Positions 42,471 through 64,000 of a stretch of 64,000 nucleotides of DNA are shown in pieces. Made by a program: the position numbers and the translations under genes. Under the pieces are notes generated by a model. The model was not told where the DNA came from. It ran no database searches and saw only the letters and a program-made list of their open reading frames with translations. Each line of letters opens with the position of its first letter. The first letter of the stretch is position 1. Source of the DNA: Legionellaceae bacterium (lineage in GTDB: Bacteria > Pseudomonadota > Gammaproteobacteria > Legionellales > Legionellaceae); assembly GCA_029212505.1 (NCBI GenBank), contig JARGOS010000001.1, forward strand, positions 471,930 to 535,929. Reading direction: 5' to 3'.

Positions 42471-43466
42471 ATGATTTATCAAGCTATTGAAGACATTATT
42501 CTTGATGATATTTTTTTTAAAGCTTCATCTTATTGCCATAAAATTGATATTCATATCAAGCTAGAAGGTTTCAATATTCCGGGTTCCATCAAATTAAAAC
42601 CTGCAAAGTTTATGATTGAACATGCAGAAAAAGAAAATATTTTAACACCACAGTCCAAAATTATTGAATCATCATCCGGTAATTTAGGTGTTGCGCTAAG
42701 CCACATTTGTGCAAGCAAAAATTACCCTTTTACCTGTGTGACGGATGTTAAAGCGACGGATCAAAATATCCAAATAATGAAAGCGCTCGGCGCAAATGTC
42801 GTTATTATTGACGAACTTGATGAAAACCTGGGGTATGTTGGGAGTCGATTGAAATACATTCAACAACAATTAGAGCTTGATAAAAATTTAGTATGGTTAA
42901 ATCAATATAATAACATTCAAAATGTTGAGAGCCATTATCAACTTACAGCAAAAGCCATCTTGAAGGAATTTGATAGCGTTGATTTTCTTTTTGTTGGAGC
43001 TGGAACTTCCGGTACTTTAATGGGGTGCATTAAGCGCTTCAAAGAAAAATCTCCCCATACAAGAATCATCGCTGTGGATACGACCGGTTCACTCAATTTC
43101 TCAGAAACACCCGCTAAACGTTACTTACCTGGTTTGGGATCAAGTTCTTATCCTGAAATTTTAGATCTCGGATTAATTGATGAGTTTATTTTAATCGATG
43201 AAATCGATGCAATTAAACATTGCAAATACTTAACTCAACGATATGGCATCCTAGCCGGCGCATCCACCGGTTCAGTTTTAGCGGCCATTGAACACTACGC
43301 CCCTTACATCAACCCGGCAAACACCGTTGTAACCTTATGTTCTGATTGGGGAAGAAGTTACTTAGACACCGTTTATAATGAAACGTGGGTCACGCATACC
43401 TTCCCCCAGAGTAAACGCATGAGCCATCAAAAAAAATCATTGATGCAGGTTACATCCTCACGTTGA
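42471..43466 (+). CDS. sbnA: SbnA-like N-(2-amino-2-carboxyethyl)-L-glutamate synthase (Dap biosynthesis)
   Basis: 331 residues, fold type II PLP enzyme. The lysine motif is NIPGSIKLKPAKF (K41), followed by the long matches to staphyloferrin SbnA: EHAEKENILTPQSKIIESSSGNLGVAL, WLNQYNN, GAGTSGTLMG and AGASTGSVLAAIEHY. SbnA joins O-phospho-L-serine and L-glutamate to N-(1-amino-1-carboxyl-2-ethyl)-glutamate, the precursor of L-2,3-diaminopropionate. It differs from cysteine synthase in the PGSIK region. Its partner SbnB is convergent with a 40-bp overlap at the 3' ends, instead of in one operon. It has its own promoter at 42412-42439. Likely supplies Dap to the NRPS. Confidence 0.85.
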   Translation: MIYQAIEDIILDDIFFKASSYCHKIDIHIKLEGFNIPGSIKLKPAKFMIEHAEKENILTPQSKIIESSSGNLGVALSHICASKNYPFTCVTDVKATDQNIQIMKALGANVVIIDELDENLGYVGSRLKYIQQQLELDKNLVWLNQYNNIQNVESHYQLTAKAILKEFDSVDFLFVGAGTSGTLMGCIKRFKEKSPHTRIIAVDTTGSLNFSETPAKRYLPGLGSSSYPEILDLGLIDEFILIDEIDAIKHCKYLTQRYGILAGASTGSVLAAIEHYAPYINPANTVVTLCSDWGRSYLDTVYNETWVTHTFPQSKRMSHQKKSLMQVTSSR

Positions 43467-44416: not shown

Positions 44417-44507
44417 GATATCCCTATGTGTTTTAAATAGCTCTTTTATACGCCTAGTATGTTCATTTTCTCTAATAAAAGTGTTCAATTCAATTAGACC
44501 AGAACAA

Positions 44508-45683
44508 TCATAAGATGGCGAGTCGTTTGATACCTTCATTAATTTTATCGGTGCTGATGTTCGAAAAATTAAAACGAATACCGTTGTAGATATTGATGTT
44601 TTTTTTTGCCCAAAAAGATTCACTGGGAATAAAAATAACGTGATTTTTGATGGCCTGTTCTAGCAAAAGGGTTGTATGAACGTCATGTTTAAAGCTAGCC
44701 CATAAAAAAATACCTGAGGATGGAATATGAAACGTTAAATTATCAAAGTAACGTGTTAATGCCGTAGCTAAAGCATCACGTCGCTTTTTGTAGGTTTGGC
44801 GTAGGTGAGTTAAATGTGTATTTAAGCCATGGGTTTGTAAAATATGTTGGACAATATGTTGTGTCAACGTTGACGTATTAATATCACTGCACTCTTTTAA
44901 AGAGGCAAGCTTGGGGATTAAGTATTCTGGTGCGATAAGCCAACCGACACGTAAATTGGGTGCTAATATTTTTGAAAAAGAGCCAATATAAAACGTTGTG
45001 TTATGTGCATGTTTTTTTATTGGAGAAAGGGGTGTTTCATAATTTAAAAAACCATAGGGATCATCTTCAATGATGGGCATGTTGTAGTGTTCTGATAACT
45101 TGGCGAGGTGCGCTCGTTTTTCTTGGCTCACACTCACCCCATGAGGGTTACCCCCGTCTGTTACAAGGTATAAAAATGCAGGCTTCACGTGATGTTTAAG
45201 AATTTTTTCGACAGATTCGACACAAATGCCTGTTTTAGGATGTGTTGGGACGGTTAATATTTGGGGCGAGAAAGGCGCTAAAGCTTGGAGCATGCCTGGG
45301 TAAGCCAGTTCTTCGATAATAATAGTACTGCCATGACTTAACAGTAATCGAGTTAATAAACTAATGCCTTGTTGTGCTCCGGTTGTGAGCAGGATTTGAT
45401 TGGGCGTGCACGTTACACCACGTAAAGACATGAGCTTGACGATTTCTAATTTGAGCTCTTCGCTTGGCGGAGCGTATTGAAATAACTGGGGATGGGCTTG
45501 AAGTATTTTGTGGGTTGCTTCTTGGATGTATTGAGTTGGGAACAATTCGGGAGCAGGTAGACCTAAGGCAAAAGAAATAAAGGTTGGATCGGTTGCATAC
45601 TGAAGTGAGTTTTCCATGGCAGATGGCTTTGTGTTTTGAACCCATTTAGGAAGCACGCATTGATTAGACTGTGGCAGGCTCAT
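44508..45683 (-). CDS. hpgT: fold type I aminotransferase, HpgT-like (4-hydroxyphenylglycine formation)
   Basis: 391 residues. PLP lysine K238 in YIGSFSKILAPNLRVGW, with the phosphate-binding TTGAQQGISLL, and YLVTDGGNPHG and IIEDDPYGFLNY contacts. It belongs to the MocR/2-aminoadipate-type aminotransferase group (no DNA-binding domain). In Hpg pathways HpgT transaminates 4-hydroxybenzoylformate to L-4-hydroxyphenylglycine. The gene overlaps hmaS by 20 bp and follows it in one operon; that context is the main reason for the HpgT call. Another amino-group transfer for the same peptide remains possible. Confidence 0.72.
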   Translation of the reverse strand: MSLPQSNQCVLPKWVQNTKPSAMENSLQYATDPTFISFALGLPAPELFPTQYIQEATHKILQAHPQLFQYAPPSEELKLEIVKLMSLRGVTCTPNQILLTTGAQQGISLLTRLLLSHGSTIIIEELAYPGMLQALAPFSPQILTVPTHPKTGICVESVEKILKHHVKPAFLYLVTDGGNPHGVSVSQEKRAHLAKLSEHYNMPIIEDDPYGFLNYETPLSPIKKHAHNTTFYIGSFSKILAPNLRVGWLIAPEYLIPKLASLKECSDINTSTLTQHIVQHILQTHGLNTHLTHLRQTYKKRRDALATALTRYFDNLTFHIPSSGIFLWASFKHDVHTTLLLEQAIKNHVIFIPSESFWAKKNINIYNGIRFNFSNISTDKINEGIKRLAIL

Positions 45684-46722
45684 GTTTTAATTCTTCCCGT
45701 TCAATAGCTTGAAAAAGTGTTTTTATATTGTTACTTCCAAAGCCCGCGCACCCTGCACGTTCGATGATTTCAAAAAATAAAGTGGCTCTTTGACTGATGG
45801 GTTTAGAAAAGATCTGATAGAGAAAACCATCGTTGGTTTTATCCATTAAAATCGCATATTTTTGAAGCAATTCGAAATCGTACGTGCATTCTATAAATTT
45901 ATTTTTTTGGAGCTTATAATAAGTTTTTGGAATAGGTAAAAAATCAAGCTCAGTCTCATGTAATGCATGAACAGCCGATACAATATGTTGAGTTAAAAAA
46001 GCGATATGCTGAATGCCTGGACCCTGAAATGCGTTGAGAAAGGTTGTAATTTGTGATGGCTGAGTTGCATGAATAGGCGTAACAAAAACAAGTTTGATAC
46101 GTTTGTTTTTTGAGATCAACGCACATGAATTCATACCACTTTTGGGAGTCATCAAGTATTCTTGATGTAATATATCAAACTGATAGGCGTCTTGGTAATA
46201 ACGAATCCAAGAAGAAAAATCTTTCGAATAAACACAGATGGCAAGGTGATCTATCTGCGTGAAGGTAGCGTGTGTCGTCATGGGTTGATGGTGCATAGGA
46301 ATAAAGTGAGGAAGTTTTTGGCTGTGTGTGGATGCTCGTTGGATAAACGTATGTGTCATATCACCAAAGACGCCGATGGTTGCTGTTATAATTTGCTCAG
46401 AGCCTTCCCCGTGCGTGCTTAAATTTGAAATGACATGATTGCCGTTTTGAATAGCAGATGCGAGGCATGATTTTATGTCGTGTGTGAGAAAGGCTATATC
46501 TTTTACGCCATCGCCATGAGTATGAATAAAGTTTGATATACGGCTGTTTGGATCGCTCGAGGTGGTTAATACGAATCGAATAGAACCGTGCTGGATAAGT
46601 ATGGATGAGCGATCTTCGTGGTTTAAATAAGCTATCGGCGTGAAATTAAACGTGGTTTTATAAAAATGAACCGTTTCAGCAAGGTCGCCAACGTAAAATT
46701 CGATATAGTCTATATCTTCCAT
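45664..46722 (-). CDS. hmaS: 4-hydroxymandelate synthase HmaS (HPPD-related dioxygenase)
   Basis: 352 residues, two vicinal-oxygen-chelate halves. Fe(II) ligands are H159 (TQIDHLAICV), H239 (GPGIQHIAFL) and E318 (TLFFEIIERAG). It matches glycopeptide-pathway HmaS in HTHGDGVKDIAF and TATIGVFGDMTHTFIQ. The residue after GFGSNN is Ile (I333); hydroxyphenylpyruvate dioxygenases have Phe there, and that change is known to favour hydroxymandelate formation. HmaS converts 4-hydroxyphenylpyruvate to 4-hydroxymandelate. Start is 4 bp after hmo on the same strand. Tyrosine-catabolic hpd is the main alternative, made unlikely by the neighbour genes. Confidence 0.82.
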   Translation of the reverse strand: MEDIDYIEFYVGDLAETVHFYKTTFNFTPIAYLNHEDRSSILIQHGSIRFVLTTSSDPNSRISNFIHTHGDGVKDIAFLTHDIKSCLASAIQNGNHVISNLSTHGEGSEQIITATIGVFGDMTHTFIQRASTHSQKLPHFIPMHHQPMTTHATFTQIDHLAICVYSKDFSSWIRYYQDAYQFDILHQEYLMTPKSGMNSCALISKNKRIKLVFVTPIHATQPSQITTFLNAFQGPGIQHIAFLTQHIVSAVHALHETELDFLPIPKTYYKLQKNKFIECTYDFELLQKYAILMDKTNDGFLYQIFSKPISQRATLFFEIIERAGCAGFGSNNIKTLFQAIEREELKHEPATV

Positions 46723-46726
46723 ATGA

Positions 46727-47815
46727 TTAATAATTCCTGCTTAATAAGGTACGACCATGGGTCCTAATGTCTTCTATTGTGTTGCATCCACATAAAATCA
46801 TGGTTTCTTTCAGTTCATCTTGATAAATTTCAAAAAGACGTTTAACACCTTCAACGCCATGAGCAGCTAAAGCCCAAAGTATAGGTCGACCCATCATAAT
46901 GCAATCAGCGCCCAGTGCGAGAGCCTTAAAAACATCAGAGCCACGCCTGAATCCACCGTCAATTAAAATAGGCATTTTACGCTGGATAGTGTCGGCAATA
47001 TCAGGAAGTACATCAATGGTTGCGGGCATGGTATCTAATTGCCTCCCCCCATGATTTGAGATGATAATACCGGACGCCCCATGTTTTAAAGCAAGCATTG
47101 CATCATCTGCACGCATAATACCTTTAATAATAATAGGAAGCGTTGTAAGTGATTTAATCCAGCCTATATCATCCCATGTCAGAGTTGCGTCAAAAAGAGC
47201 GTCTGCGTGATTTTTAATACTTGAACCCTGGGCTTGGTTGGCGTGGGTGTTGAAATAATTATCGGGAAGGTTTTGTGCAGAAACGCCTTCAGGCAATTTA
47301 AATTGATGCCGAATGTCTTGTTCACGTTTTCCCATGATGGGTACATCGACGGTTAAAACCAAGGCATTAAAGCCTGATTTTTCTGCACGCTGAATTAAAT
47401 TTTGTGTGAGGCTTCTGTCTTTATGAATATATAATTGAAACCATAGCGGTGTGTTTGCTCTTGCGGCAATCTCTTCTAAAGAAACCGAGCTCATGGTACT
47501 TAAGGTCATGCCAAGTTTGAGTTCATTGAGTGCGGAGATGGTTGCTTTTTCACCTGATGGGTGGGCAAGGCAGTGCAAAGCTGTAGGTGCTGTAAATAAA
47601 GGGTATGGCAAGGCGTGGTTTAGGAGTGAAATATCAGTTTGTGTTTGCGTGCTGCCCCGAAGAACTCTGGGTGTGATGTAAATTTTTTTGAAGGCATCTT
47701 TATTGTTAGATAACGTTTCTTCATCATATGCGCCGGAAGCTATGTAATCATAGATGGAAGAAGGTAATATACGTTTTGCTTCATGCTCAAAATCGTGAGT
47801 ATTAGTAAAATTCAT
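46727..47815 (-). CDS. hmo: FMN-dependent 4-hydroxymandelate oxidase (Hmo)
   Basis: 362 residues, alpha-hydroxy-acid oxidase family. FMN and catalytic positions: K231 in IIIKGIMRADDA, H255 and R258 in ISNHGGRQLDTMPATID, and ILIDGGFRRGSDVFKALALGAD. Hmo oxidises 4-hydroxymandelate to 4-hydroxybenzoylformate. First gene of the transcript, with hmaS 4 bp downstream; the divergent outer-membrane protein gene is 115 bp away. Lactate or glycolate oxidation would be the default call without hmaS. Confidence 0.8.
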   Translation of the reverse strand: MNFTNTHDFEHEAKRILPSSIYDYIASGAYDEETLSNNKDAFKKIYITPRVLRGSTQTQTDISLLNHALPYPLFTAPTALHCLAHPSGEKATISALNELKLGMTLSTMSSVSLEEIAARANTPLWFQLYIHKDRSLTQNLIQRAEKSGFNALVLTVDVPIMGKREQDIRHQFKLPEGVSAQNLPDNYFNTHANQAQGSSIKNHADALFDATLTWDDIGWIKSLTTLPIIIKGIMRADDAMLALKHGASGIIISNHGGRQLDTMPATIDVLPDIADTIQRKMPILIDGGFRRGSDVFKALALGADCIMMGRPILWALAAHGVEGVKRLFEIYQDELKETMILCGCNTIEDIRTHGRTLLSRNY

Positions 47816-47930
47816 ATGCAGCCTATACAGTAGTAGAATAGCTCTTGCAAAAATAGAAACTATATGGCATTTTCTTAGTGCGTCTCCACACTTTTATGTA
47901 TTTTGCATTATTAAATTAAGGATAATTTAA

Positions 47931-48653: not shown

Positions 48654-48665
48654 AATTTAATATTG

Positions 48666-48824: not shown

Positions 48825-48831
48825 TGATGTT

Positions 48832-55900: not shown

Positions 55901-58900
55901 GCCTTTTAGCACCGCATTTAGATAGGGGTGCTTCAGGTATAGCTGATTTGATGCATGTCATGTTTACCATGCATAATTTTCGAGAAAAAAATCTGGCTCA
56001 TCCTGCATGGCTCAAACATCAAAAAATACATGTGAAAGATGCATATGAAAAATTTGGTTTGTCCGTTATTGGTCAGCCTGAATCAGATGGTATGGTCTTT
56101 GGTGTGAGTTTTGTACGTGATTGTTATGATCTTTCGTATATAAAACACATAGCGGATAGTTTTATTAGGTTATTAATCCATATTTCAAAAGAAGATTTCA
56201 ATCTTCATGCACCTATGGGTCACACAAGCCTTCTTACCTTGCCTGAATACCAACAAATTATTTATGACTGGAATGCAACCGATAAGGCTTATGCTAAAAA
56301 CAAAACCATTCATCAGATTTTCGAAGAACAAGCAACTAGAACGCCGCATGCTATTGCGGTGGTTTATGAAGACACCCAGCTAACCTATCAAGAACTTGAT
56401 GAAGCGTCTAATCAGCTAGCCCATCTGATACGAAAGCAGTATCAAGCACTCAAGCCTGATACGTTGATAGCGCTGTGTGTTGAGCGTTCATTGGATATGG
56501 TCATTGGAATTTTAGGGGTGCTTAAAGCGGGTGGTGCTTATGTGCCGATTGACCCAAGCTATCCGATAGCTCGCATAAAATTTATGCTGCAAGATACCCA
56601 AAGCGAACTTCTTTTAACGCAAACCAAGTTTTTAAATTTACTAAGCGATATGGCGTGCGAGCTACTCGCTTTAGACTCAAAGCCTTATTTAGCAGAAAGT
56701 ATTTCGGCACTTCAACCTATCAGCGGTCCAAAAGATTTGGTGTATGTGATGTATACCTCAGGCACCACAGGGCAGCCGAAAGGGGTGATGCTCCAACATT
56801 CAGGCCTTGTTAATCGGATTGAATGGATGCAAGAAGAATATCAACTTACACCAGAAGATATTATTTTGCATAAAACGCCTTATGTGTTTGATATTTCTGT
56901 TTGGGAGATGTTCTGGGCAAGCTTATCTGGTGCAAAAGTGGTGTTTGCTCGTCACGATGGGCAAAAGGATTATGTTTATTTAGCCCAGTTGATGGCTGGT
57001 AATCGGGTGAGTGTGGCTCATTTTGTTCCGAGTGCGCTTATGGAATTTAAGCAGCATGTAGACCAACGCGTGTCATTAAATTTACGATATTTATTTTGCA
57101 GTGGCGAAGCGTTATTACCCCAACATCTTCTAGGGCTAGATAGTTTAAGTGCTGTTCAAACCGAGGTTCATAATCTCTACGGTCCAACTGAAGCGTCCAT
57201 TGAGGTCACACACTTCTTCTGTAAGCCAGGTTTAGAGAAGGTTTGTATAGGTCGACCGATTCAGAATACTCAGATCTATGTCTTAGATACGCATTTAACT
57301 CCTGTTCCCACCGGTGTGATAGGCGAGCTGTATATTGGCGGCGCAGGCCTTGCCCGAGGTTACTTAAACCAACCTGAACTGACTCAAGCACGTTTTATTT
57401 CAAATCCTTTCGGTGAGGGCAGACTCTATAAAACGGGCGATCTCGCGCGTTACTTACCTGACGGTAATTTAGAGTATATAGGCCGTAATGACTTTCAGGT
57501 GAAAATCAGAGGCTTTAGAATTGAACTAGGCGAAGTTGAAGCAGCGCTCTTAACCTATCCTGAAATACAACAAAGCACCGTGCTGGCCAAAACCAAAAAC
57601 GATAGCCAGTATTTAGTTGCTTACTATGTTTCTGATGCGTTTATTAATCAGGATATTCTCGAAACACATCTAGCCAACCAACTTCCTGAACATATGATAC
57701 CCCGTGCTTATATCCATCTTGATGCACTGCCGCTGACCATCAACGGCAAATTAGACCGCGCCGCCTTACCCGAGCCTGATTTTAATCCAGATGCACAGAC
57801 CTACGTTGCACCTCGTAATGAGCTTGAAGTTAAGCTTTGTTCGATATGGGTCTCGCTGTTAAAACTTGAGCGCGTCGGTATACGGGATGATTTTTTTAAA
57901 TTGGGCGGTCATTCCATTTTAGCAATTCAGTTAGCACATCGCATGTCTGAGGTATTGAATGAAGCCATTCATGTTGCAGATATTTTTAAATACAAAACGA
58001 TAGCAGGGCTCTTAATTCACCTTAACTCAAATGACATTCAAATTAAGATAGAGCCCACATCTGACATAGTCTCTCCCTTGTCTTTTGCACAAGAGCGGCT
58101 ATGGTTCATTGAGCGGTATGAGCAGGGGACAGATGCGTATCATATTCCGTTTGGTTTTGAGCTTGATTCAAGCATGGATGTACCTAGGCTCACCAACGCG
58201 CTACAAGTCTTGGTTGAGCGCCATGAAATTCTTCGGACGGTGTTTATCCAAGATGAAGCGGGCGTTGATTATCAATCGATTCTGGATGCTCCGCTTACTA
58301 TTTCGATACAAAATATTACGTCATCGGATGTATCCGATGCATTGCATGAGGCCAGTCATGCTTTATTTGATTTAGAAAAATCTTATCCAATCAAAGCTTG
58401 GCTTTATGAAGTTACGGATATGGATAAACACATCTTATTTTTAAGTGTTCATCACGTAGCGTTTGATGGTTGGTCGATGGGTGTATTTTCTCGAGATCTC
58501 CAAGCCTTATATGAAGGCGTAGCACTCGAACCTTTAGCGATTCAATACAAAGATTTTGCTTTGTGGCAGCGGGCGTATTTGAGCGACGCGTTTTTAGAAA
58601 AGCAACTCACCTATTGGCAGTCACGTCTGTTAGGTCACGAGCCCTTAAATCTTCCAACAGATTACCCAAGGCCTAAAGCGGTTGATTACACCGGCGCGAG
58701 CCATAGGTTTGAATTATCCGAAGAGCTATCGCAAGCACTGCAAGTCTTAGCTAAGCAAGAAGGCGTGACACTTTACACGCTCTTGCTGATGGGGTTTTAT
58801 TTATTATTATCGCGTTACACAGGCCAAACGGATATTTTAGTTGGAACCGTGACCTCGAACCGTCATTATCCCGGTGTTGAAAACTTGCTCGGATTTTTTG

Positions 58901-61900
58901 TGAATACGTTGGCACTTCGTTTCTTGGTGGACCCAGAGATGACGGGAGAAGGTTTAATCCATGCATTAAGTGCTATATTGATTGAGGCTCAAGCTCACCA
59001 AGATATGCCGTTTGAGAAGCTTTTATCTTCACTTGAGATGGAGCGCGATAGCTCACGTCATCCACTGGTTCAGGTGCTCTTTGACGTCATCTACGCTTCT
59101 GATGAATCTTCATTGCTAACGCCTGTGAGTATGTCTGAGCAGTACGAAATTGCCAAGTTTGATTTAAGCCTTAATTTTTGGATTGATTCAGATTCGATAT
59201 CAGGAAAAATCACGTATGCGACATCGCTTTATAAACTTGAAACGATCAGGCAATTAACTCAGCATTACGAAACGCTTTTAGGTGAATTGGTTCGTGACAC
59301 AAAAGCGCCTATTCAAAGCTATGCTTTGCTTTCACCCTCCGAGTACCAACGTATTATCTATGACTGGAATGCAAGCGAACAAGTTTATCCCGAAAACAAA
59401 ACCATCCATGAGCTTTTCGACGAACAAGCAGCGAGTACACCGCATGCTATTGCCTTGGTTTATGAGAATACACAGCTAACCTATCAAGAGCTTAGTCAAG
59501 CCTCCAATCAGTTGGCCCATCTGATACGAAAACAGTATAGGTCACTCAAGCCGGATACGTTGATAGCGCTCTGTTTAGAGCATTCGCTAGACATGATAAT
59601 TGGAATTTTAGGGGTGCTTAAAGCGGGTGGTGCTTATGTTCCGATTGACCCAAATTATCAAAGAGCTCGTATTCAGTTTGTGCTTGAAGACACCCAAACT
59701 AAGCTGATTTTAACGCAAACCAAGTTTTTAAATTTACTCAATGACATGCCGTGTCAGTTGCTTGTCTTAGATAAAAAGCCTTATTTATCAGAACGCAAAT
59801 CAGCACTTAAACCTCTTAGTAGCCCACACGATTTAGCGTATGTTATTTATACTTCAGGGACCACAGGACAGCCGAAAGGGGTGATGGTTCAGCATAAAAA
59901 TATACATGCTCTTTTAGTTTTAACACATACCTTGTACGATTTTACATCAAAAGATGTTTGGGTGCTTTACCATGCCTATGCATTTGATTTTTCTGTCTGG
60001 GAGATGTGGGGTTCACTTTCTGTAGGCGGGAAGCTGATCATTCCAACAGAGCATGAGCGAAACAACAAAGATGTATTTTATAAGTTGTGTTTTAAACATG
60101 GCGTGACAGTACTCAATTATACGCCCAGTGCTTTTCGCGTGTTTAGCGAGCTCTTTCTTTCTAACGCCGAAGCACACTTGCCTTTGCGTTACATCATCAT
60201 TGGAGGTGAAGCATTAACACTTCGCCATATTAAACAGTACCAAGCTCACTGTAAAACCATGAATTTTCGTATGGTTAATATGTACGGACTAACTGAAGCC
60301 ACGGTAGTTTCTACATGTTATGAGTTATTGCTTCATGAAAGCAGCTCTTGCCTTATCGGAAGACCTATTCCCGGGGTGGTAGCCTATGTTTTAGATCATG
60401 ACCTCACACCTCTTCCCATCGGTGTGGTAGGCGAACTTTATATTGGTGGCGTAGGTCTCGCTCGTGGGTATCTTAATCAGCCTGAACTCACAGCCGAGCG
60501 GTTTATTCCCAATCCTTTCGGTGAAGGCAGGCTCTATAAAACGGGCGATCTCGTGCGTTACTTACCTGACGGTAACTTAGAGTATATGGGACGTAATGAC
60601 TTTCAGGTGAAAATCAGAGGCTTTAGAATTGAACTAGGCGAAGTTGAAGCAGCGCTCTTAACCTATCCCGAAATAAAACAAAGTACGGTTTTGGCCAAAA
60701 CCAAAAACGACAGCCAGTATTTAGTTGCTTACTATGTTTCTGATACGCTTATTAATCATGATGTTCTTGAAACGCATCTAGCTAACCAACTGCCTGGACA
60801 TATGATACCCCGTGCTTATATCCATCTTGATGCATTGCCTTTGACTATCAACGGTAAGCTGGACTGTGCGGCACTTCCTGGACCTGATTTTAATCCCGCT
60901 GTGGATAGCTATATTGCACCTCGTAATGAGCTTGAAGTGAAGCTTTGTTCGCTATGGGTCTCGCTGTTAAAACTTGAGCGCGTCGGTATACGGGATGATT
61001 TTTTTAAATTGGGCGGTCATTCCATTTTAGCAATTCAGTTAGCCCATCGTATGTCTGGGGTTTTAAACAAAACACTTCATGTTGCCGATGTTTTTAAATA
61101 TAAAACCATCGCAGGGTTATTAAGTCATCTAAGCGCTATTGATTCAGATGGCGCTCAGGTGAGCATCGAGCCAACAACCGATTTAATTGCACCTTTATCG
61201 TTTGCACAAGAGCGGCTATGGTTCATTGAGCGGTATGAGCAAGGGACGGATGCGTATCATATTCCGTTTGGGTTTGAGTTGGACTCAACCATTGATGTAC
61301 CTAGGCTCACAAAAGCTTTACAAGCCTTGGTTGAGCGCCATGAAATTCTTCGAACGTTATTTATTCAAGATGAAGCAGGTGTTGATTATCAATCGATTCA
61401 GGATGCCCCGCTGGCGATTACGACACAAAGCCTTACGTCATTGGATGTGCCTCATGCATTGCATCAAGCCAGTCATGCTTTATTTGATTTAGAAACATCC
61501 TATCCGATTAAAGCCTGGCTTTATGATGTCACAGATACGAATACGCATATCTTATTCTTGAGCATTCATCATGTGGCGTTTGATGGTTGGTCGATGGGTG
61601 TATTTTCTCGAGATCTCCAAGCCTTATATGAAGGCGTAGCACTCGAACCTTTAGCGATTCAATACAAAGATTTTGCTTTGTGGCAGCGGGCGTATTTGAG
61701 CGACGCGTTTTTAGAAAAGCAACTCACCTATTGGCAGTCACGTCTGTTAGGTCACGAGCCCTTAAATCTTCCAACAGATTACCCAAGGCCTAAAGCGGTT
61801 GATTACACCGGCGCGAGCCATAGGTTTGAATTATCCGAAGAGCTATCGCAAGCACTGCAAGTCTTAGCTAAGCAAGAAGGCGTGACACTTTACACGCTCT

Positions 61901-64000
61901 TGCTGATGGGGTTTTATTTATTATTATCGCGTTACACAGGCCAAACGGATATTTTAGTTGGAACCGTGACCTCGAACCGTCATTATCCCGGTGTTGAAAA
62001 CTTGCTCGGATTTTTTGTGAATACGTTGGCACTTCGTTTCTTGGTGGACCCAGAGATGACGGGAGAAGGTTTAATCCATGCATTAAGTGCTATATTGATT
62101 GAGGCTCAAGCTCACCAAGATATGCCGTTTGAGAAGCTTTTATCTTCACTTGAGATGGAGCGCGATAGCTCACGTCATCCACTGGTTCAGGTGCTCTTTG
62201 ACGTCATATACGCCTCTGATGAATCTTCATTGCTAACGTCTGTGAGTATGTCTGAGCAGTACGAAATTGCAAAGTTTGACTTAAGTCTTGATCTTTGGGT
62301 TGATTCAGATTCGATATCAGGAAAAATCACGTATGCGACGTCACTTTACAAGCCTGAAACCATCGCGCAGCTAGCCGGGCATTATGAAACGCTTTTAGGT
62401 GAATTGGTGCGTGACACAAAAGCGCCTATTCAAAGCTATGCTTTGCTTTCACCGGCTGAATATCAGCAAATGATTGTTGATTGGAATAGAACAGAGAAGG
62501 CTTATCCAAAAAATAAAACTATCTATCAGCTTTTTGAAGAGCAAGCGGCTAGAACACCGAATCACATTGCCGTGGTCTATGAAGGTACAGAATTAAGCTA
62601 CCAAGCGCTTCATCAACGTATGTTATGCGCGGCAAGTGCTTTACTCAGACAGGGGGTTATGTCAGGACAAACGCTTGTATTTTTACTGGATCGTGATATT
62701 GAATATTTGGTGAGCATGCTCGCCGTCTGGCGGATTGGATGCGCATTTGCGCCACTCAACCTGACCTCTCCTGATGAAAAAAACCGTACTTTATTGGCTG
62801 AGATTGCAGAAGGCTGGGTATTAACGACTGAAACTCATGTCAAGCGGTTTTCAGGGGTGCTTCCAGTTCTGGTCTTAGAAAATATCATGCTTCAAACAAA
62901 GGCCGATGTTATGCCATTGTATGGCAGTCCAGGTGATTTAGCGTACATCATGTTTACCTCAGGGAGCACGGGGATCCCCAAGGGGGTTATGATTCAACAG
63001 GATGGGATGTTGAATCATGTCTGGGCTAAGCTTCAGGATTTTCAAATCACCACCGAAGATAATATTGCCCAAACAGCAACACACGTGTTTGATGTGAGTA
63101 TTTGGCAGTTGATTACGGGGTTATTGGTCGGAGCTCGTACCACAATTTTAACGGGAGATGATGCCTGGGTTAGCGCGCGATTATTAGGCCATATCGAGGC
63201 GCATGAGATCACGATTTTTGAGAGCGTGCCCTCGCATCTTAAAGTACTTTTAGATGATCTCGAGACGGATGATCATAAGCCATCCTTGCCTTCATTACGC
63301 TACCTTATAATGAATGGCGAGGGGTTATCTCCCCTGGATTGTGCGCGTTGGCAAGCGCTCTACCCTGAACATGTCTTAGCGAATGTTTATGGCCCCACGG
63401 AATGTTCAGATGACATCACGCACTTTATTTTTCAAGAAATAAAGCCTTCATGGGGTACGTATGTTCCCATCGGTAAGCCTGTCCAAAACATGAAGTTGTA
63501 TGTACTCGATGCGAACTTGAACCCTGTTCCCATTCAGGTGGTAGGTGAGCTTTATGCCTCGGGTATTGGCCTTGCACGCGGTTATTTAAATCAGCTGGAA
63601 CTTACCCAAGCAAGTTTTATACCCAACCCATTTGGGGAAGGCAAATTATATAAAACAGGTGATTTGGTGCGTTGGCTACCGGACGGTCATTTAGAATACA
63701 TGGGTCGCCGAGACTTTCAAGTCAAATTACGTGGGCAACGTATTGAACTGGGTGAAATTGAAGCTGCACTCTTAACTTATCCTGAAATAAAACAAAGCAC
63801 GGTTCTAGCTAAAGCCAAAGGTGAGCATCAGTATTTGGTTGCCTATTATGTTTCTGATACGTTTATTAATCAGGATGTTCTTGAAACGCATGTATCCAAT
63901 CAACTCCCTGAACATATGATACCCCGTGCTTATATCCATCTTGACGCATTGCCGCTGACCATCAACGGCAAATTAGACCGTGCAGCACTGCCTGAGCCTA
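48832..64000 (+). CDS. giant nonribosomal peptide synthetase (open at the window end)
   Basis: One uninterrupted frame of at least 5056 codons. Order by residue: unusual N-terminal region 1-375; A1 376-863, T1 (S904); Cy 963-1400, A2 1424-1937, T2 (S1983); C 2042-2460, A3 2494-2984, T3 (S3028); C 3080-3500, A4 3523-4020, T4 (S4064); C 4120-4540, A5 4562 to the end. Codes read by eye: A1 DVSRIGEVAK (unassigned), A2 DLYNLSLIWK (Cys), A3 DIWHFSLIEK (Ser-like), A4 DFWNIGMVVK (Thr-like), A5 DVWEINVDDK (acidic pocket, likely basic substrate). No epimerase, methyltransferase, oxidase or thioesterase is visible. The Dap and Hpg genes at 42471-47815 give the precursors. Near-identical tracts in modules 1, 3, 4 and 5 show recent recombination. 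Elongation continues beyond 64000. Confidence 0.95.
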   Translation, partial: MKVLRVLLVSPSDRLNVMLVKYLIDAGHCVDLIENEDAPQWLDLFNFNLQIIPKATLDTALYDVLIDMDDVLGAIKIPRLCFELTQTKCSYFLRVVLFDTVCLELSSGDVSDVSDVLDKLFEEITELFIDAVVMLIRGDAPVIEHQANQAISNTLFLKYVHYDRGLQALHGVYQSFEQHDLIFKLPVCLDADDVYQECKLDGFVWSHDRLELFVLYLLMLYNAREGALYAFDVEVNQKSITKYIEVKPEHTYKKIITELNHQAYALIHHSLYSCAASNHKKTSILLSFGCAYQYQDAYLLQLGVDVEQEYFYIRYPKAWTFFSNINRLLPEFCKKLGAFSKQNQPIYHLLCQDKSFYQKQLYDWNATDKAYSNHKTIHELFDEQAASTPNAIAVVYEDTQITYQELNQASNQLAHLIRKQYQALKPDTLIALCVERSLEMIIGILGVLKAGGAYVPIDPSYPLARIQFMLEDTQSELLLTQTKFLSLLNDMPCQLLVLDQKPYQSEGISALEPISGPKNLAYVIYTSGTTGQPKGVMVEHHNLLNLVFSQASYIQATEVGVILQYASYVFDVSISEIFSALSVGGVLCILPDIYRHNTDKLLAYLDSQSVTVVRTTPALLKKIKVQALPKLRVLIVGGERCDTSTLEIWSKGRALYNEYGPTECTVASTTFKYSSGSLNTIIGKPLNNTRMYVLDAHLTPVPIGVTGELYIGGAGVARGYLNQPKLTQARFIPNPFGEGRLYKTGDLARYLPDGNLEYIGRNDFQVKIRGFRIELGEVEAALLTYPEIQQSTVLAKTKNDSQYLVAYYVSAAFINHDVLETHLANQLPEHMIPRAYIHLDALPLTINGKLDRRALPEPDFNPSEHAYVAPRNELEVKLCSIWGSVLKLERVGICDDFFRLGGNSIVGMQLVSQINFILDCRIDVSVIFKHRTIQAIVSYIQLEIDHIHGFVFNPYVIQSSDTARLYEPFELNNTQQAYYLGRLNVFDLGNVSTHVYYEFSFKYLDTARLELAFNILIQRHPELRTVFAHGQQQYLEKSPYYVIAQESLSETEFLAVRARLAHKIYQPDVFPLFDLCVSHGCFLEQEDVYILHLSFDALLMDINSWRIFEDELTQLYENPNVALPPLNITFRDYMQQVSCIRASDLFEVDKHYWLDKLKDYNFNMNLPLRCSVASIDKPHFARVTKTIKKNIWEKIQQKALNHHLSTTAVIMVVFGKVLSHWSNQDCVCINLTLFNRLPLHSHVNHLLGDFTILELFNYKHQPSRHIIHEISENHEHLWSDIAHHLFDGIDVQRLVREELGLTSNQLLAPVVLTSALGMEMRHNTDDFLDASYLGSRYSITQTSQAWLDNKAYETPDGFVAEWEYVEQLFDPEIMRQMHEAYCLLIEYLAEADWDEDLFPPISLASQDLAVIQAANDDVMSVSEHTLFSYYEANMVAQGVLEHTAIIDHHAVDASDYTYKRLLDDTHMVAQYLVCFLSKQAGHPELVAVLCEKSYHQVLALLGIMKSGSGYLPLSLDWPIERLDEALSSVDVDVILMSALQAKQFETCPWFLAKYRCLVIEDLVAQLKFDDALNYALQDILLPCVQPDAIAYVIFTSGSTGTPKGVTISHRNALNTLRSVNQKYHVNAEDKILALSELSFDLSVYDIFGMLAVGGCLIFPDQARTKEPAYWLELIQLYKITLWNSVPQLAQLLVDESLRQATPTSLRLFLLSGDYVPSVLARTIHQRQPKAVVVSLGGATEGSIWSIWHEIKKFDAVNIPYGTAMPNQQMYILSHQLTHCPVGVVGEIHIGGCGVALNYYHDVQKTQARFIEHESLGRLYKTGDLGRWHAEGYIEFVGRVDNQVKLHGYRVELDEITSKIKALPEIKNALTVMFTQDGQKYPISYILLLKPMLDLKFYLDTQLSKTLPEYMLPYAYIVLDTLPLTINGKVNLKALPSPPMKALSQDYVAPRDKVETQLCQLFSNILNIKRVGIRDDFFRLGGNSLLAMQLMGLLTQHFKTKITLKRIYQCKTVLALSQHVTRDKVLKTSSPHSIYKKIDLQTGSHTLSAIQKGIYLHNKLTPKLPTYNVPIWVRLFDANLDRLEQALKATLKRYAILRMVVVPDFGYRMIPLEDVSIVHTLLDEVDLDEYVRQQSNIAFVLDERLLIQLEIISFADSSDLILNLTAHHMLIDGYSVNLILSEIMDIYASIKSCVTTVISEDTMYFDYAAFQAHELASPQYQHAIQSLITKLSNASPIGLKKINHDAGDDAAEHFDVRLNQNVLGALEYLSVTHDVSLFSILASCLYHVLSVFNQSEGQFPLGLTVSTRPYGLDNVVGPFINTLPLLFDYQASDSFLSNFKRSHEQVLHLNEYHHMNLSLLAPHLDRGASGIADLMHVMFTMHNFREKNLAHPAWLKHQKIHVKDAYEKFGLSVIGQPESDGMVFGVSFVRDCYDLSYIKHIADSFIRLLIHISKEDFNLHAPMGHTSLLTLPEYQQIIYDWNATDKAYAKNKTIHQIFEEQATRTPHAIAVVYEDTQLTYQELDEASNQLAHLIRKQYQALKPDTLIALCVERSLDMVIGILGVLKAGGAYVPIDPSYPIARIKFMLQDTQSELLLTQTKFLNLLSDMACELLALDSKPYLAESISALQPISGPKDLVYVMYTSGTTGQPKGVMLQHSGLVNRIEWMQEEYQLTPEDIILHKTPYVFDISVWEMFWASLSGAKVVFARHDGQKDYVYLAQLMAGNRVSVAHFVPSALMEFKQHVDQRVSLNLRYLFCSGEALLPQHLLGLDSLSAVQTEVHNLYGPTEASIEVTHFFCKPGLEKVCIGRPIQNTQIYVLDTHLTPVPTGVIGELYIGGAGLARGYLNQPELTQARFISNPFGEGRLYKTGDLARYLPDGNLEYIGRNDFQVKIRGFRIELGEVEAALLTYPEIQQSTVLAKTKNDSQYLVAYYVSDAFINQDILETHLANQLPEHMIPRAYIHLDALPLTINGKLDRAALPEPDFNPDAQTYVAPRNELEVKLCSIWVSLLKLERVGIRDDFFKLGGHSILAIQLAHRMSEVLNEAIHVADIFKYKTIAGLLIHLNSNDIQIKIEPTSDIVSPLSFAQERLWFIERYEQGTDAYHIPFGFELDSSMDVPRLTNALQVLVERHEILRTVFIQDEAGVDYQSILDAPLTISIQNITSSDVSDALHEASHALFDLEKSYPIKAWLYEVTDMDKHILFLSVHHVAFDGWSMGVFSRDLQALYEGVALEPLAIQYKDFALWQRAYLSDAFLEKQLTYWQSRLLGHEPLNLPTDYPRPKAVDYTGASHRFELSEELSQALQVLAKQEGVTLYTLLLMGFYLLLSRYTGQTDILVGTVTSNRHYPGVENLLGFFVNTLALRFLVDPEMTGEGLIHALSAILIEAQAHQDMPFEKLLSSLEMERDSSRHPLVQVLFDVIYASDESSLLTPVSMSEQYEIAKFDLSLNFWIDSDSISGKITYATSLYKLETIRQLTQHYETLLGELVRDTKAPIQSYALLSPSEYQRIIYDWNASEQVYPENKTIHELFDEQAASTPHAIALVYENTQLTYQELSQASNQLAHLIRKQYRSLKPDTLIALCLEHSLDMIIGILGVLKAGGAYVPIDPNYQRARIQFVLEDTQTKLILTQTKFLNLLNDMPCQLLVLDKKPYLSERKSALKPLSSPHDLAYVIYTSGTTGQPKGVMVQHKNIHALLVLTHTLYDFTSKDVWVLYHAYAFDFSVWEMWGSLSVGGKLIIPTEHERNNKDVFYKLCFKHGVTVLNYTPSAFRVFSELFLSNAEAHLPLRYIIIGGEALTLRHIKQYQAHCKTMNFRMVNMYGLTEATVVSTCYELLLHESSSCLIGRPIPGVVAYVLDHDLTPLPIGVVGELYIGGVGLARGYLNQPELTAERFIPNPFGEGRLYKTGDLVRYLPDGNLEYMGRNDFQVKIRGFRIELGEVEAALLTYPEIKQSTVLAKTKNDSQYLVAYYVSDTLINHDVLETHLANQLPGHMIPRAYIHLDALPLTINGKLDCAALPGPDFNPAVDSYIAPRNELEVKLCSLWVSLLKLERVGIRDDFFKLGGHSILAIQLAHRMSGVLNKTLHVADVFKYKTIAGLLSHLSAIDSDGAQVSIEPTTDLIAPLSFAQERLWFIERYEQGTDAYHIPFGFELDSTIDVPRLTKALQALVERHEILRTLFIQDEAGVDYQSIQDAPLAITTQSLTSLDVPHALHQASHALFDLETSYPIKAWLYDVTDTNTHILFLSIHHVAFDGWSMGVFSRDLQALYEGVALEPLAIQYKDFALWQRAYLSDAFLEKQLTYWQSRLLGHEPLNLPTDYPRPKAVDYTGASHRFELSEELSQALQVLAKQEGVTLYTLLLMGFYLLLSRYTGQTDILVGTVTSNRHYPGVENLLGFFVNTLALRFLVDPEMTGEGLIHALSAILIEAQAHQDMPFEKLLSSLEMERDSSRHPLVQVLFDVIYASDESSLLTSVSMSEQYEIAKFDLSLDLWVDSDSISGKITYATSLYKPETIAQLAGHYETLLGELVRDTKAPIQSYALLSPAEYQQMIVDWNRTEKAYPKNKTIYQLFEEQAARTPNHIAVVYEGTELSYQALHQRMLCAASALLRQGVMSGQTLVFLLDRDIEYLVSMLAVWRIGCAFAPLNLTSPDEKNRTLLAEIAEGWVLTTETHVKRFSGVLPVLVLENIMLQTKADVMPLYGSPGDLAYIMFTSGSTGIPKGVMIQQDGMLNHVWAKLQDFQITTEDNIAQTATHVFDVSIWQLITGLLVGARTTILTGDDAWVSARLLGHIEAHEITIFESVPSHLKVLLDDLETDDHKPSLPSLRYLIMNGEGLSPLDCARWQALYPEHVLANVYGPTECSDDITHFIFQEIKPSWGTYVPIGKPVQNMKLYVLDANLNPVPIQVVGELYASGIGLARGYLNQLELTQASFIPNPFGEGKLYKTGDLVRWLPDGHLEYMGRRDFQVKLRGQRIELGEIEAALLTYPEIKQSTVLAKAKGEHQYLVAYYVSDTFINQDVLETHVSNQLPEHMIPRAYIHLDALPLTINGKLDRAALPEP
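49957..51660 (+). other. NRPS module 1: A1-T1
   Basis: Initiation module without a true C domain. A-domain motifs: YTSGTTGQPKG (A3), NEYGPTE (A5), TGDLARYLPDG (A7), NGKLDR (A10). Specificity positions give DVSRIGEVAK; Arg at the position of 278 and Glu at 322 are notable, and I cannot assign the substrate. The T domain serine is S904 in LGGNSIVG. Confidence 0.85.
51052..51260 (+). repeat. 209-bp identical tract, copy 1 (C-terminal A1)
   Basis: Identical by reading to 57424-57632 in A3 (offset 6372 bp, 2124 codons) and nearly so to the same region of A4. Covers A7-A8 motifs (TGDLARYLPDG to the linker before A10). Confidence 0.85.
51700..54890 (+). other. NRPS module 2: heterocyclization domain, cysteine A2, T2
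   Basis: The condensation-type domain carries the cyclization motif DxxxxDxxS (DALLMDINS, D1096-S1104 at 52117-52143) in place of HHxxxDG, and the Cy-type opening TQQAYYLGRLNVFDLGNVSTH. A2 has FDLSVYDIFG, LWNSVP and GGATEGSIW, giving DLYNLSLIWK, the standard Cys code. T2 serine S1983 in LGGNSLLA. Predicted product: thiazoline. No oxidase insert is seen in A2. Confidence 0.88.
54955..58020 (+). other. NRPS module 3: C-A3-T3, serine-like pocket
   Basis: C domain with HHMLIDG (55327-55347), divergent from the C domains of modules 4 and 5. A3 has VFDISVWEMFW, AHFVPSAL, FCSGEAL and LYGPTEASIE, code DIWHFSLIEK, one step from Ser codes (DVWHFSLVDK) but with Glu in place of Asp at 331. Ser or 2,3-diaminopropionate is possible. 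T3 serine S3028 in LGGHSILA. Confidence 0.8.
57424..57632 (+). repeat. 209-bp identical tract, copy 2 (C-terminal A3)
   Basis: Partner of 51052-51260. Shows that A-domain C-terminal subdomains of modules 1, 3 and 4 have been exchanged or homogenised while the substrate-binding N-terminal parts stayed different. Confidence 0.85.
58065..61145 (+). other. NRPS module 4: C-A4-T4, threonine-like pocket
   Basis: C domain with HHVAFDG (58450-58470). A4 has AFDFSVWEMWG, LNYTPSAF, IIGGEAL and MYGLTEATVV, code DFWNIGMVVK, which differs from the common Thr code (DFWNIGMVHK) only at 331. T4 serine S4064 in LGGHSILA. Confidence 0.82.
58459..59090 (+). repeat. 632-bp identical tract, copy 1 (C domain of module 4)
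   Basis: Identical by reading to 61576-62207, at an offset of 3117 bp (1039 codons). Flanks diverge at once on both sides (synonymous and non-synonymous changes). It covers the C-terminal two-thirds of the C domain, starting inside HHVAFDG. No terminal repeats, so not a mobile element; gene conversion or unequal crossing-over is likely. Confidence 0.9.
61188..64000 (+). other. NRPS module 5: C-A5 (cut by window end), acidic pocket
   Basis: C domain with HHVAFDG (61567-61587). A5 has VFDVSIWQLI, FESVPSHL, IMNGEGL and VYGPTECSDD, code DVWEINVDDK. Glu at 278 and two Asp at 330-331 suggest a positively charged side chain such as Dap, Dab or Orn. A domain complete to NGKLDRAALP; the T domain lies past the end. 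Confidence 0.75.
61576..62207 (+). repeat. 632-bp identical tract, copy 2 (C domain of module 5)
   Basis: Partner of 58459-59090. The frame is preserved because the offset is a multiple of three. Confidence 0.9.

What the first reader, a model, noticed from the sequence alone, without database searches (positions are those of the whole stretch)
42471..64000. NRPS cluster with dedicated Dap and Hpg supply in a Legionellales-like genome
SbnA/SbnB homologues (Dap) and HmaS/Hmo/HpgT-like genes (Hpg) flank one NRPS gene of more than 15 kb. Hpg pathways are known mainly from actinomycete glycopeptide and related antibiotics; Dap from siderophores and a few antibiotics. I do not recognise a described product that joins both with a Cys-derived thiazoline. 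The recipe is seen in the sequence; the product is an inference.
Basis: partly seen in the sequence, partly recalled or inferred. Interest (0 to 1): 0.95.

Follow-up and report, generated by a model that had tools for sequence, protein, structure and literature searches.

The report
Althiomycin-style cluster with rare amino acids
A bacterium of the Legionella family carries a giant peptide-building enzyme beside gene sets predicted to supply two rare amino acids, and together with a predicted oxygenase gene placed at the cluster's other end they likely build a small modified peptide whose first steps would resemble those of the antibiotic althiomycin.

Summary
SbnA and SbnB pass curated cut-offs; the HmaS-like protein is of the hydroxymandelate-synthase type. 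Both sets lie left of one NRPS that runs off the contig end at 64000. Synteny with a same-genus genome lacking the cluster puts contig C4 next; it starts with an apparent epimerization-domain tail, a thioesterase and an AurF-like N-oxygenase. The held NRPS is Nn-A1-PCP-Cy-A2-PCP-C-A3-PCP-C-A4-PCP-C-A5; A2-A4 read Cys, Ser, Thr. A5's code (DVWEINVDD) has relatives in 4 of 5 Legionellaceae genomes with SbnA over its cut-off and was returned from none of 138 others, so A5 is read as the Dap domain. No A domain has the recalled Hpg code; A1, in a Tyr-type clade, is the candidate by elimination. The N-terminal domain always co-occurs with the AurF-like gene (8 of 8), and relatives show an althiomycin-type starter. 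Best model: Hpg(oxime)-thiazoline-Ser-Thr-D-Dap. Shown: genes, domains, co-occurrences, synteny. Inferred: Hpg at A1, oxime, D-Dap, product. An unsequenced gap could hide modules. A new variant of a known kind.

The parts
42471..43466 (+). sbnA-like, 2,3-diaminopropionate (Dap) synthesis, PLP enzyme
   Evidence: TIGR03945 373.0 bits against cut-off 349.95
43427..44398 (-). sbnB-like, Dap synthesis; convergent with sbnA and overlapping its 3' end; the listed ORF extends to 44623 but the family model starts at residue 76 (true start not determined)
   Evidence: TIGR03944 339.2 bits against cut-off 326.9, residues 76-397
44508..45683 (-). hpgT-like class I/II aminotransferase
   Evidence: PF00155; third gene of the set in 4 of 4 genomes with HmaS of 48% identity or more; also in the more distant sets
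45664..46722 (-). hmaS-like 4-hydroxymandelate synthase, motif FGSNNI (HPPDs have FGxxNF)
   Evidence: best PDB match 2r5v PCZA361.1; motif; a second HPPD-family homologue at C19:450459-451412, 32% identical
46727..47815 (-). hmo-like FMN 2-hydroxyacid oxidase
   Evidence: PF01070 440.9 bits; 4-hydroxymandelate oxidase 5zzp is matched (283 bits) but hydroxyacid and glycolate oxidases match better (332 and 330 bits); its name rests on the conserved set
47931..48653 (+). small ORF of unknown function between hmo and the NRPS; role in the cluster not shown
   Evidence: no Pfam or NCBIfam match
48832..49911 (+). N-terminal domain 'Nn' of the NRPS (residues 1-360)
   Evidence: no Pfam match; related N-termini in 8 of 143 genomes, all 8 with the AurF-like gene
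49915..51381 (+). A1, code DVSRIGEVA; candidate Hpg domain
51415..51642 (+). PCP1
51697..53073 (+). Cy, heterocyclization domain, FDALLMDINS
53077..54618 (+). A2, code DLYNLSLIW (Cys), no inserted oxidase
54652..54879 (+). PCP2
54967..56253 (+). C domain, HHMLIDG
56260..57753 (+). A3, code DIWHFSLIE (Ser clade)
57787..58014 (+). PCP3
58078..59349 (+). C domain, HHVAFDG
59356..60861 (+). A4, code DFWNIGMVV (Thr clade)
60895..61122 (+). PCP4
61195..62466 (+). C domain, HHVAFDG
62473..63975 (+). A5, code DVWEINVDD, assigned to Dap by co-occurrence with sbnA; the contig ends just after it

Best explanation
This stretch is the left part of a non-ribosomal peptide cluster that likely makes a pentapeptide Hpg-Cys(thiazoline)-Ser-Thr-D-Dap, with Dap predicted to come from SbnA/SbnB and Hpg from the HmaS-Hmo-HpgT set, and with an AurF-like enzyme, likely encoded at the cluster's far end, that would turn the amine of the first residue into an oxime, as proposed for althiomycin. 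Proposed course: HmaS would convert 4-hydroxyphenylpyruvate to 4-hydroxymandelate, Hmo would oxidise it to 4-hydroxybenzoylformate and HpgT would aminate it to Hpg. A1 would load Hpg, Cy would condense it with Cys and close a thiazoline; no oxidase domain is inserted, so the ring would stay a thiazoline. Ser, Thr and Dap would follow. A terminal E domain, seen only by its apparent tail on contig C4, would invert Dap before the thioesterase releases the chain. Shown here: genes, domain order, codes, the synteny that places C4 beside the window, and two co-occurrences (A5-type code with sbnA; Nn with the AurF-like gene). Inferred: Hpg at A1, Dap at A5, the oxime, D-configuration, chain length and every chemical step.
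For: Dap supply: both SbnA and SbnB pass curated cut-offs. A5 as Dap domain: SbnA is over its cut-off in 5 of 143 genomes of the order (G000, G003, G015, G046, G134); codes DVWE[IMV]N[VT]DD occur in 4 of those 5 (window, G003, G015, G134), form one clade (support 0.998) that groups with the Ser domains (0.92), and the A5 search at E <= 1e-90 returned only one other genome, G041, whose domain has a Ser code; Fisher p = 3e-7, not corrected for relatedness. Hpg supply: HmaS-type match, Ile in place of the HPPD Phe, a second HPPD-family homologue elsewhere in the genome, and the three genes as one set in 4 of 4 genomes with HmaS of 48% identity or more. A1: lies in a clade of 15 domains (support 0.81) in which 9 of the other 14 have DASTVAAVC (recalled as Tyr) or a code within two positions of it, and the other four A domains are accounted for. 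Althiomycin-type starter: Nn in 8 of 143 genomes, all 8 with the AurF-like gene; of 9 genomes with that gene near full length at 54% identity or more only G046 lacks Nn. In 5 of the 6 relatives whose surroundings were fetched the AurF-like gene lies directly before the Nn synthetase (G002, G003, G022) or one methyltransferase gene away (G054, G058). The seven positions recalled as AurF's iron ligands are kept. G054 has AurF-like, methyltransferase, Nn-A(Gly)-PCP-Cy-A(Cys)-oxidase-like insert-PCP and a second synthetase with Ser, Cys, KS and TE, like alb1-6 in PMC3445576 (passages and section 13 read). C4 continues the cluster: in same-genus genome G032, which lacks it, homologues of the window's left flank and of C4's right flank are neighbours; G+C is 36.8% in C4's first 1862 bases and 43.3% from there to 18000.
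Against: No A domain of the genome has the recalled Hpg code, whereas in G107 the Hpg set sits near an NRPS with DIFHAGLIL, close to it. A1's own code shares only three of nine positions with DASTVAAVC, and its nearest neighbour in the tree is a domain of G032, a genome without an HmaS-type gene. G046 has sbnA, the Hpg set and an AurF-like gene 81-82% identical, but none of its 17 NRPS-type A domains has the A5-type code and no Nn was found there. A5's code differs from what is said of the poly-Dap synthetase, which has Phe at the second position (PMC10522769, passages). The gap between C19 and C4 has unknown length. Hmo matches glycolate-type oxidases better than 4-hydroxymandelate oxidase. 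No transporter or resistance gene was recognised among the held cluster genes. Dap-type modules in G015 and G134 are not followed by an E domain; only G003's is. The last gene before the insertion point on the C4 side is only a 34% homologue in G032; the next clear one (88%) is 4.4 kb from the left flank.
Confidence: 0.5

Rival explanations
1. The Hpg-loading module lies in the unsequenced gap between C19 and C4; A1 loads another (aromatic) amino acid such as Tyr, and the peptide has six or more residues.
For: A1's code is not Hpg-like; 9 of its 14 clade mates have DASTVAAVC, recalled as a Tyr code, or one within two positions of it. Internal repeats of up to 2.2 kb at 88% identity could break an assembly and lose a module; the PF00668 search found no E-domain body, so at least one piece is missing.
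Against: The missing PCP plus E body fits about 1.5 kb (my estimate), below the smallest of the 22 contigs (2153 and 2169 bases, with C4 and C19). The same repeats were passed between modules 3, 4 and 5. The only further NRPS A domain found in the assembly is the Gly-type one on C20.
Confidence: 0.27
2. The HmaS-like gene is a duplicated HPPD for tyrosine breakdown or pigment, and the oxidase and aminotransferase beside it are ordinary enzymes; the NRPS does not use Hpg.
For: The HmaS-like protein passes the 4HPPD model TIGR01263 (333.0 against 277); the oxidase matches glycolate oxidases better than 4-hydroxymandelate oxidase.
Against: Closest solved structure is PCZA361.1, recalled as a hydroxymandelate synthase; FGSNNI motif; a second HPPD-family homologue in the genome (its motif was not read, but 22 of 22 such copies read in relatives, L035-L056, have the Phe form); in the 80 named loci kept of 488 the Ile form has an HpgT-like gene in the fetched stretch in 8 of 11 and the Phe form in 0 of 69; the set recurs.
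Confidence: 0.06
3. A sulfazecin-like monobactam: the terminal Dap is closed to a beta-lactam by the thioesterase.
For: Dap assigned to the last A domain held, with a thioesterase on C4.
Against: The thioesterase has GWSFG with serine, whereas the passages on SulM ask for a Gln-Cys-Asn motif and a sulfotransferase (PMC11298585); no sulfotransferase family was among the matches to the cluster genes examined; an E domain would stand before the TE.
Confidence: 0.04
4. The product is a metal-binding compound (siderophore-like), the oxime, thiazoline and Dap amine being ligands. This concerns use and could be true together with the best model.
For: Dap supply genes and thiazolines are common in siderophores (recalled); sbnA/sbnB-like genes occur in the clusters of the iron-chelating chitinopeptins (PMC9248904, passages).
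Against: No receptor, ferric reductase or export gene was recognised among the neighbouring genes that were run against Pfam; most genes of C4 were not run.
Confidence: 0.13

Closest known systems
Althiomycin synthetase (alb1-6 of Serratia marcescens Db10, alm of Myxococcus xanthus)
   Same: AurF-like N-oxygenase gene; first two modules A-PCP-Cy-A(Cys)-PCP; third residue Ser; thioesterase release (PMC3445576 passages and section 13; here)
   Different: A1 is not Gly-type, no oxidase insert in A2, Thr and Dap in place of Cys and Gly, no KS domain and no methyltransferase in what is held; Hpg and Dap gene sets added
Althiomycin-type cluster of G054, matched to Legionella cincinnatiensis (Nn 100% identical)
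   Same: Related Nn domain (24% identical), AurF-like gene (53-55%), Cys A domain in one clade with A2 (support 0.959), Ser as third residue
   Different: Gly starter, oxidase-like insert, second Cys, KS and TE, ABC and MFS genes
4-Hydroxyphenylglycine sets of actinomycete antibiotics (vancomycin-type, nocardicin, CDA; recalled)
   Same: HmaS, Hmo and HpgT-like genes as one set; PCZA361.1, recalled as HmaS of Amycolatopsis orientalis, is the closest solved structure
   Different: Gram-negative host; no A domain with the recalled Hpg code
SbnA/SbnB Dap sets (staphyloferrin B, recalled; sulfazecin; chitinopeptins)
   Same: Both enzymes over curated cut-offs
   Different: Dap goes, by inference, to an A5 with code DVWEINVDD; no such code was seen in the passages I read on Dap domains
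Bacitracin synthetase starter (A-PCP-Cy-A(Cys); recalled)
   Same: Aminoacyl-thiazoline from the first two residues
   Different: No N-oxygenase there and Ile as first residue (recalled)

Membership tests
Althiomycin-type cluster | AurF-like N-oxygenase with conserved diiron ligand positions | tested here: met
   PF11583 49.3 bits against 29.6; 3chh E 1.8e-4; seven positions invariant in 7 of 7 aligned, recalled as ligands; activity not tested
Althiomycin-type cluster | Starter A-PCP-Cy-A(Cys)-PCP | tested here: met
   A2 code DLYNLSLIW
Althiomycin-type cluster | Gly-specific first A domain | tested here: not met
   A1 code DVSRIGEVA; relatives G054 and G058 have DILQLGVIW, recalled as Gly
Althiomycin-type cluster | Thiazoline oxidase in module 2 | tested here: not met
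   A2 spans 1416-1929 without an insert; G054 has about 300 extra residues there
Althiomycin-type cluster | Terminal polyketide module and O-methyltransferase | tested here: inconclusive
   none in the held parts; the gap is not sequenced
Hpg biosynthesis set | HmaS rather than HPPD | tested here: met
   2r5v best; FGSNNI; Ile355 is among the residues of the substrate-pocket gate of Streptomyces coelicolor Hms (PMC3720870, passages); activity not tested
Hpg biosynthesis set | FMN 4-hydroxymandelate oxidase and HpgT aminotransferase next to hmaS | tested here: inconclusive
   families and position fit, but Hmo matches glycolate oxidases better and no reference HpgT was compared
Hpg biosynthesis set | An A domain with the recalled Hpg code in the same NRPS | tested here: not met
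   six NRPS A domains of the genome read, none DIFHLGLLC-like
SbnA/SbnB Dap synthesis | Both proteins over NCBIfam cut-offs, adjacent | tested here: met
SbnA/SbnB Dap synthesis | Dap made and used | not testable with these tools
   co-occurrence of the A5-type code with SbnA, 4 of 5 against 0 of 138 returned, is indirect
Sulfazecin-type monobactam synthetase | TE with catalytic Cys in a Gln-Cys-Asn motif | tested here: not met
   GWSFG; criterion from PMC11298585 passages
Sulfazecin-type monobactam synthetase | Sulfotransferase gene in the cluster | tested here: not met
   none among matches to the held cluster genes; the whole genome was not searched for one

The most novel reading that the evidence does not exclude
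One assembly line fuses three known recipes: althiomycin's N-oxygenase-coupled thiazoline starter, the Hpg supply of nocardicin and glycopeptides, and staphyloferrin's Dap supply, to give an (oximino)(4-hydroxyphenyl)-thiazolinyl-Ser-Thr-D-Dap, an oxime of Hpg that is made by a diiron enzyme on the carrier protein; A5 and its three relatives define a Dap code, DVWE[IMV]N[VT]DD.
Probability: 0.4. Interest if true: 0.76.

Novelty: new variant of a known kind. Interest (0 to 1): 0.62.

Why it matters
It would add a peptide family to a bacterial family studied mostly for virulence, show that Hpg pathways recur outside actinomycetes, and show a starter unit that is diversified by changing one A domain together with its precursor genes. 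The A5 code, if confirmed, lets Dap be called from sequence in this order. My searches for hydroxyphenylglycine with Legionella, and for althiomycin with Legionella, listed 1 and 3 papers, none of which looked relevant from the listing; none of the four was opened. The search for diaminopropion-, hydroxyphenylglycine and nonribosomal listed 4, none opened; hydroxyphenylglycine with hydroxymandelate, Gram-negative and nonribosomal listed none. The library holds open-licence papers only.

Tried and rejected
Closing the gap by homologues: a search with A5's region (residues 4480-5056) gave 1118 proteins (only those sharing most words were scored), the best 120 listed at 33-42% identity, no near copy of this synthetase. 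Homologues of the N-terminal domain from the window's own sequence: none among 863 candidates; starting from G054's copy, 5 proteins, the three with a named organism all from Legionella. Profile of six N-terminal domains against solved structures: one hit at E 0.39, taken as chance. Predicted structure of the N-terminal domain: mean pLDDT 45, not used for any fold search. First idea that G003's contig C107 continues the A1 of C108: rejected, the overlap is 78.6% identical. Plain HPPD reading of HmaS set low. Monobactam reading set low. A first thought that Hpg sets are peculiar to this genome was dropped.

Full report
What is there. The window is C19:471930-535929 of a 1.95-Mb assembly in 22 contigs (98% complete), and C19 ends exactly at the window's last base. 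At 42471-47815 lie sbnA, sbnB, an hpgT-like aminotransferase, hmaS and hmo; at 48832 starts an NRPS that is still open at 64000 with 5056 residues. SbnA and SbnB pass the curated cut-offs of their NCBIfam models. G+C is 37.2% in sbnA, 38.5% across sbnB to hmo and 41.1% in the NRPS, against 43.8% for positions 1-42470.

HmaS or HPPD. The protein passes the HPPD model (333.0 against 277), as hydroxymandelate synthases of the same superfamily may. These results separate it. Its best solved structure is PCZA361.1 (2r5v, 207 bits), ahead of 3zgj (180) and HPPD 1t47 (176.5); that 2r5v is the hydroxymandelate synthase of Amycolatopsis orientalis, and 3zgj a variant of the S. coelicolor one, is recalled (the listing names 3zgj an HPPD). 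It has FGSNNI where HPPDs have FGxxNF; passages of PMC3720870 list Ile355 of S. coelicolor Hms among the residues at the gate of the substrate pocket. The scan with the four Legionellaceae proteins found 488 relatives, of which 80 were kept; 11 of the 80 have Ile and 69 Phe, and an HpgT-like gene lies in the fetched stretch of 8 of the 11 and of 0 of the 69 (stretches differ in length). The genome has a second homologue at C19:450459-451412, 32% identical; I did not read its motif, but 22 of 22 copies of that kind read in relatives (L035-L056) have the Phe form.

How common the Hpg set is. Among 143 genomes of the order, 4 have an HmaS of 48% identity or more to the window's (G000 itself, G046, G048, G107), and all 4 have hmo, hmaS and hpgT as neighbours. 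Four more (G066, G124, G125, G133) have a more distant set, 30-31% identical in HmaS, with Ile; in G066 a further ORF stands between hmaS and hpgT, and in the three of these that I fetched further, two NRPS genes begin within about 7-14 kb. Motifs were read for only 29 of the order's fetched loci, so 8 is a lower bound. In G107 the set is followed by a gene pair with CarA_N and Asn_synthase matches, a crotonase-family gene, and an NRPS C-A-PCP-reductase whose A code, DIFHAGLIL, resembles the recalled Hpg code DIFHLGLLC. Hmo matches hydroxyacid and glycolate oxidases (332 and 330 bits) better than 4-hydroxymandelate oxidase (283 bits), so its name rests on the set.

Where the cluster ends. A thioesterase search found a hit at the very start of contig C4. 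C4's first frame is open to the left and reads HCATQLNEGVKQYTPSDL, then a thioesterase, then an AurF-like gene. A TPSD string after the E-type match, with GWF in it, occurs in four synthetases of three relatives (G002, G003 twice, G015; my E profile was built from the G002 one, whose sequence is), while the two E-type domains of G054's second synthetase lack TPSD; I read the start of C4 as the tail of an E domain. In G032, a same-genus genome without the cluster, the homologue of window gene 41737-42306 (82%) lies 1.5 kb from a 34% homologue of C4's gene 1962-3203 and 4.4 kb from an 88% homologue of the next one, with many colinear genes on both sides; one other ORF stands between. So C4 follows C19, and the cluster is an insertion between conserved flanks. 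The missing stretch must hold at least PCP5 and most of an E domain; no E body was found elsewhere in the assembly. The smallest of the 22 contigs have 2153 and 2169 bases, so a 1.5-kb piece could have been dropped. Its true length is unknown.

Domains and codes. Own profiles give Nn-A1-PCP-Cy-A2-PCP-C-A3-PCP-C-A4-PCP-C-A5; Pfam, on the first 4999 residues, agrees on five AMP-binding, four condensation and four PCP stretches. Codes by alignment: A1 DVSRIGEVA, A2 DLYNLSLIW, A3 DIWHFSLIE, A4 DFWNIGMVV, A5 DVWEINVDD. A2, A3 and A4 fall among domains with the codes recalled for Cys, Ser and Thr. The only other NRPS gene found in the genome, on C20, is a free-standing A-PCP-C with a code recalled for Gly.

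A5 and Dap. SbnA is over its cut-off in 5 of 143 genomes: G000, G003, G015, G046, G134. A search with A5 returned 5 genomes at E <= 1e-90: G000, G003, G015, G134 and G041. The G003, G015 and G134 domains read DVWEINVDD, DVWEMNVDD and DVWEVNTDD; G041's reads as Ser. The four form a clade (0.998) that joins the Ser domains (0.92). So 4 of 5 SbnA genomes have the code and it was returned from none of the 138 others (Fisher p 3e-7). Limits: at most 12 candidates per genome were scored and weaker matches were cut off, genomes are related, and G046 is an exception, since none of its 17 NRPS-type A domains has the code. Passages of PMC10522769 say that the poly-Dap synthetase has Phe at the second position, unlike A5, and that diamino-acid domains can carry the acidic residue at different positions, with Glu at the fourth in a bacitracin Orn domain, as in A5.

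A1 and Hpg. A1 lies in a clade of 15 domains (support 0.81) inside one of 17 (0.936); 9 of the other 14 in the smaller clade have DASTVAAVC, recalled as a Tyr code, or a code within two positions of it. A1's own code shares three of nine positions with it, and its nearest neighbour is a G032 domain with DAFFVGGAF. By elimination A1 is the one held domain left for Hpg. This is the weakest link.

AurF and the starter. The AurF-like protein aligns with p-aminobenzoate N-oxygenase 3chh (E 1.8e-4), and E107, E142, H145, E201, H228, E232 and H235 are invariant in 7 of 7 relatives aligned; the alignment sets them against the positions recalled as AurF's ligands. The N-terminal domain Nn has no Pfam match. 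It was found in 8 of 143 genomes, all of which have the AurF-like gene. In one search, 13 of 143 genomes match that gene: 9 near full length at 54-100% identity, G059 with a fragment (82 residues, 59%), and G004, G066 and G096 at 27-31%; of the 9 only G046 lacks Nn. In 3 of 6 relatives whose surroundings I fetched the gene is directly before the Nn synthetase, in 2 one methyltransferase gene away, and in G046 no NRPS is near. In G054, matched to Legionella cincinnatiensis by a 100% identical Nn, the order is AurF-like, methyltransferase, Nn-A(Gly)-PCP-Cy-A(Cys) with an oxidase-like insert, then a synthetase with Ser, Cys, KS and TE, an ABC protein and an MFS pump. That resembles the althiomycin recipe of PMC3445576 (Gly, Cys, Ser, Cys, Gly, malonyl; Alb2 AurF-like, Alb3 methyltransferase, Alb1 MFS; passages and section 13), where deletion of alb2 abolished the product and the oxime step was proposed for Alb2. 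I therefore read the window's cluster as a relative of this line with the starter changed and the second half replaced.

Verdict. Real, complete but for a gap, and a new combination of known parts. Not a member of the althiomycin family by the tests made (no Gly code, no oxidase), though its start works like it by inference. The product, the oxime and the use of Hpg are unproven. One PPTase match, in a 251-residue frame, was found in the genome, in line with the single Sfp-like PPTase reported for the Legionella genomes of PMC5126622 (passages).

Noticed in passing
L058:7435-20000 and L059:1-390 (G107:C1, Hpg set at 2962435-2965797): An Hpg set followed by two consecutive ORFs with CarA_N/glutamine amidotransferase and Asn_synthase matches, a crotonase-family gene (CarB is one, recalled), a POT transporter and an NRPS C-A-PCP-reductase with code DIFHAGLIL: an Hpg plus carbapenam-like gene neighbourhood in a Legionellaceae genome.
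   Followed up: partly
L193:3914-13130 and L302:2261-19926 (G054): Althiomycin-type cluster in a genome matched to Legionella cincinnatiensis, with an ABC protein (two ABC_tran stretches and ABC_tran_Xtn) and an MFS pump; related first domains in L. sainthelensi (84%) and L. gratiana (75%).
   Followed up: partly
L309-L314 (G124, G066, G133) and L034 (G125): A second, more distant hmo-hmaS-hpgT set; in the three genomes fetched further an ORF that looks by eye like a flavin oxygenase and two NRPS genes (codes DSFLLGATF or DSTLMGATF, and DIWTSVMVY or DIWTGVLVY) lie nearby.
   Followed up: partly
L087 (Ktedonobacteria bacterium brp13, AP024096.1): SbnA-like, SbnB-like, Ile-type HmaS, HpgT-like genes and an NRPS A domain within 21 kb: the Dap plus Hpg pairing perhaps also outside Legionellaceae.
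   Followed up: no
window 44455-44506: 52 bases, 96% identical to C20:1364-1415 at the edge of transposase-like ORFs, between hpgT and sbnB; perhaps an insertion-sequence remnant at the seam of the Hpg and Dap sets.
   Followed up: no
window 47931-48653: 240-aa ORF with a signal-like start (by eye) between hmo and the NRPS, no family match; about 100 bases around its start resemble a stretch of C22 (79%).
   Followed up: no
window 48832-49911: Orphan N-terminal domain with no Pfam or structure match, found only in 8 genomes of the order, all with the AurF-like partner; predicted model too poor to use.
   Followed up: partly
L016:6372-9611 (C20): Free-standing A-PCP-C synthetase with a code recalled for Gly; a passage of PMC5126622 mentions a single A, T, C module not limited to one Legionella clade.
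   Followed up: no
L305:9942-11144 (G032:C16): At the site without the cluster G032 carries a different 400-aa ORF, by eye a SAM methyltransferase: a possible hot spot for gene exchange.
   Followed up: no
G046, G048, G003, G002, G015: NRPS-rich small genomes of Legionellaceae: 11 to 19 matches to the A-domain model at E <= 1e-40 per genome, a few of them acyl-CoA-ligase-like ones below the cut-off.
   Followed up: no
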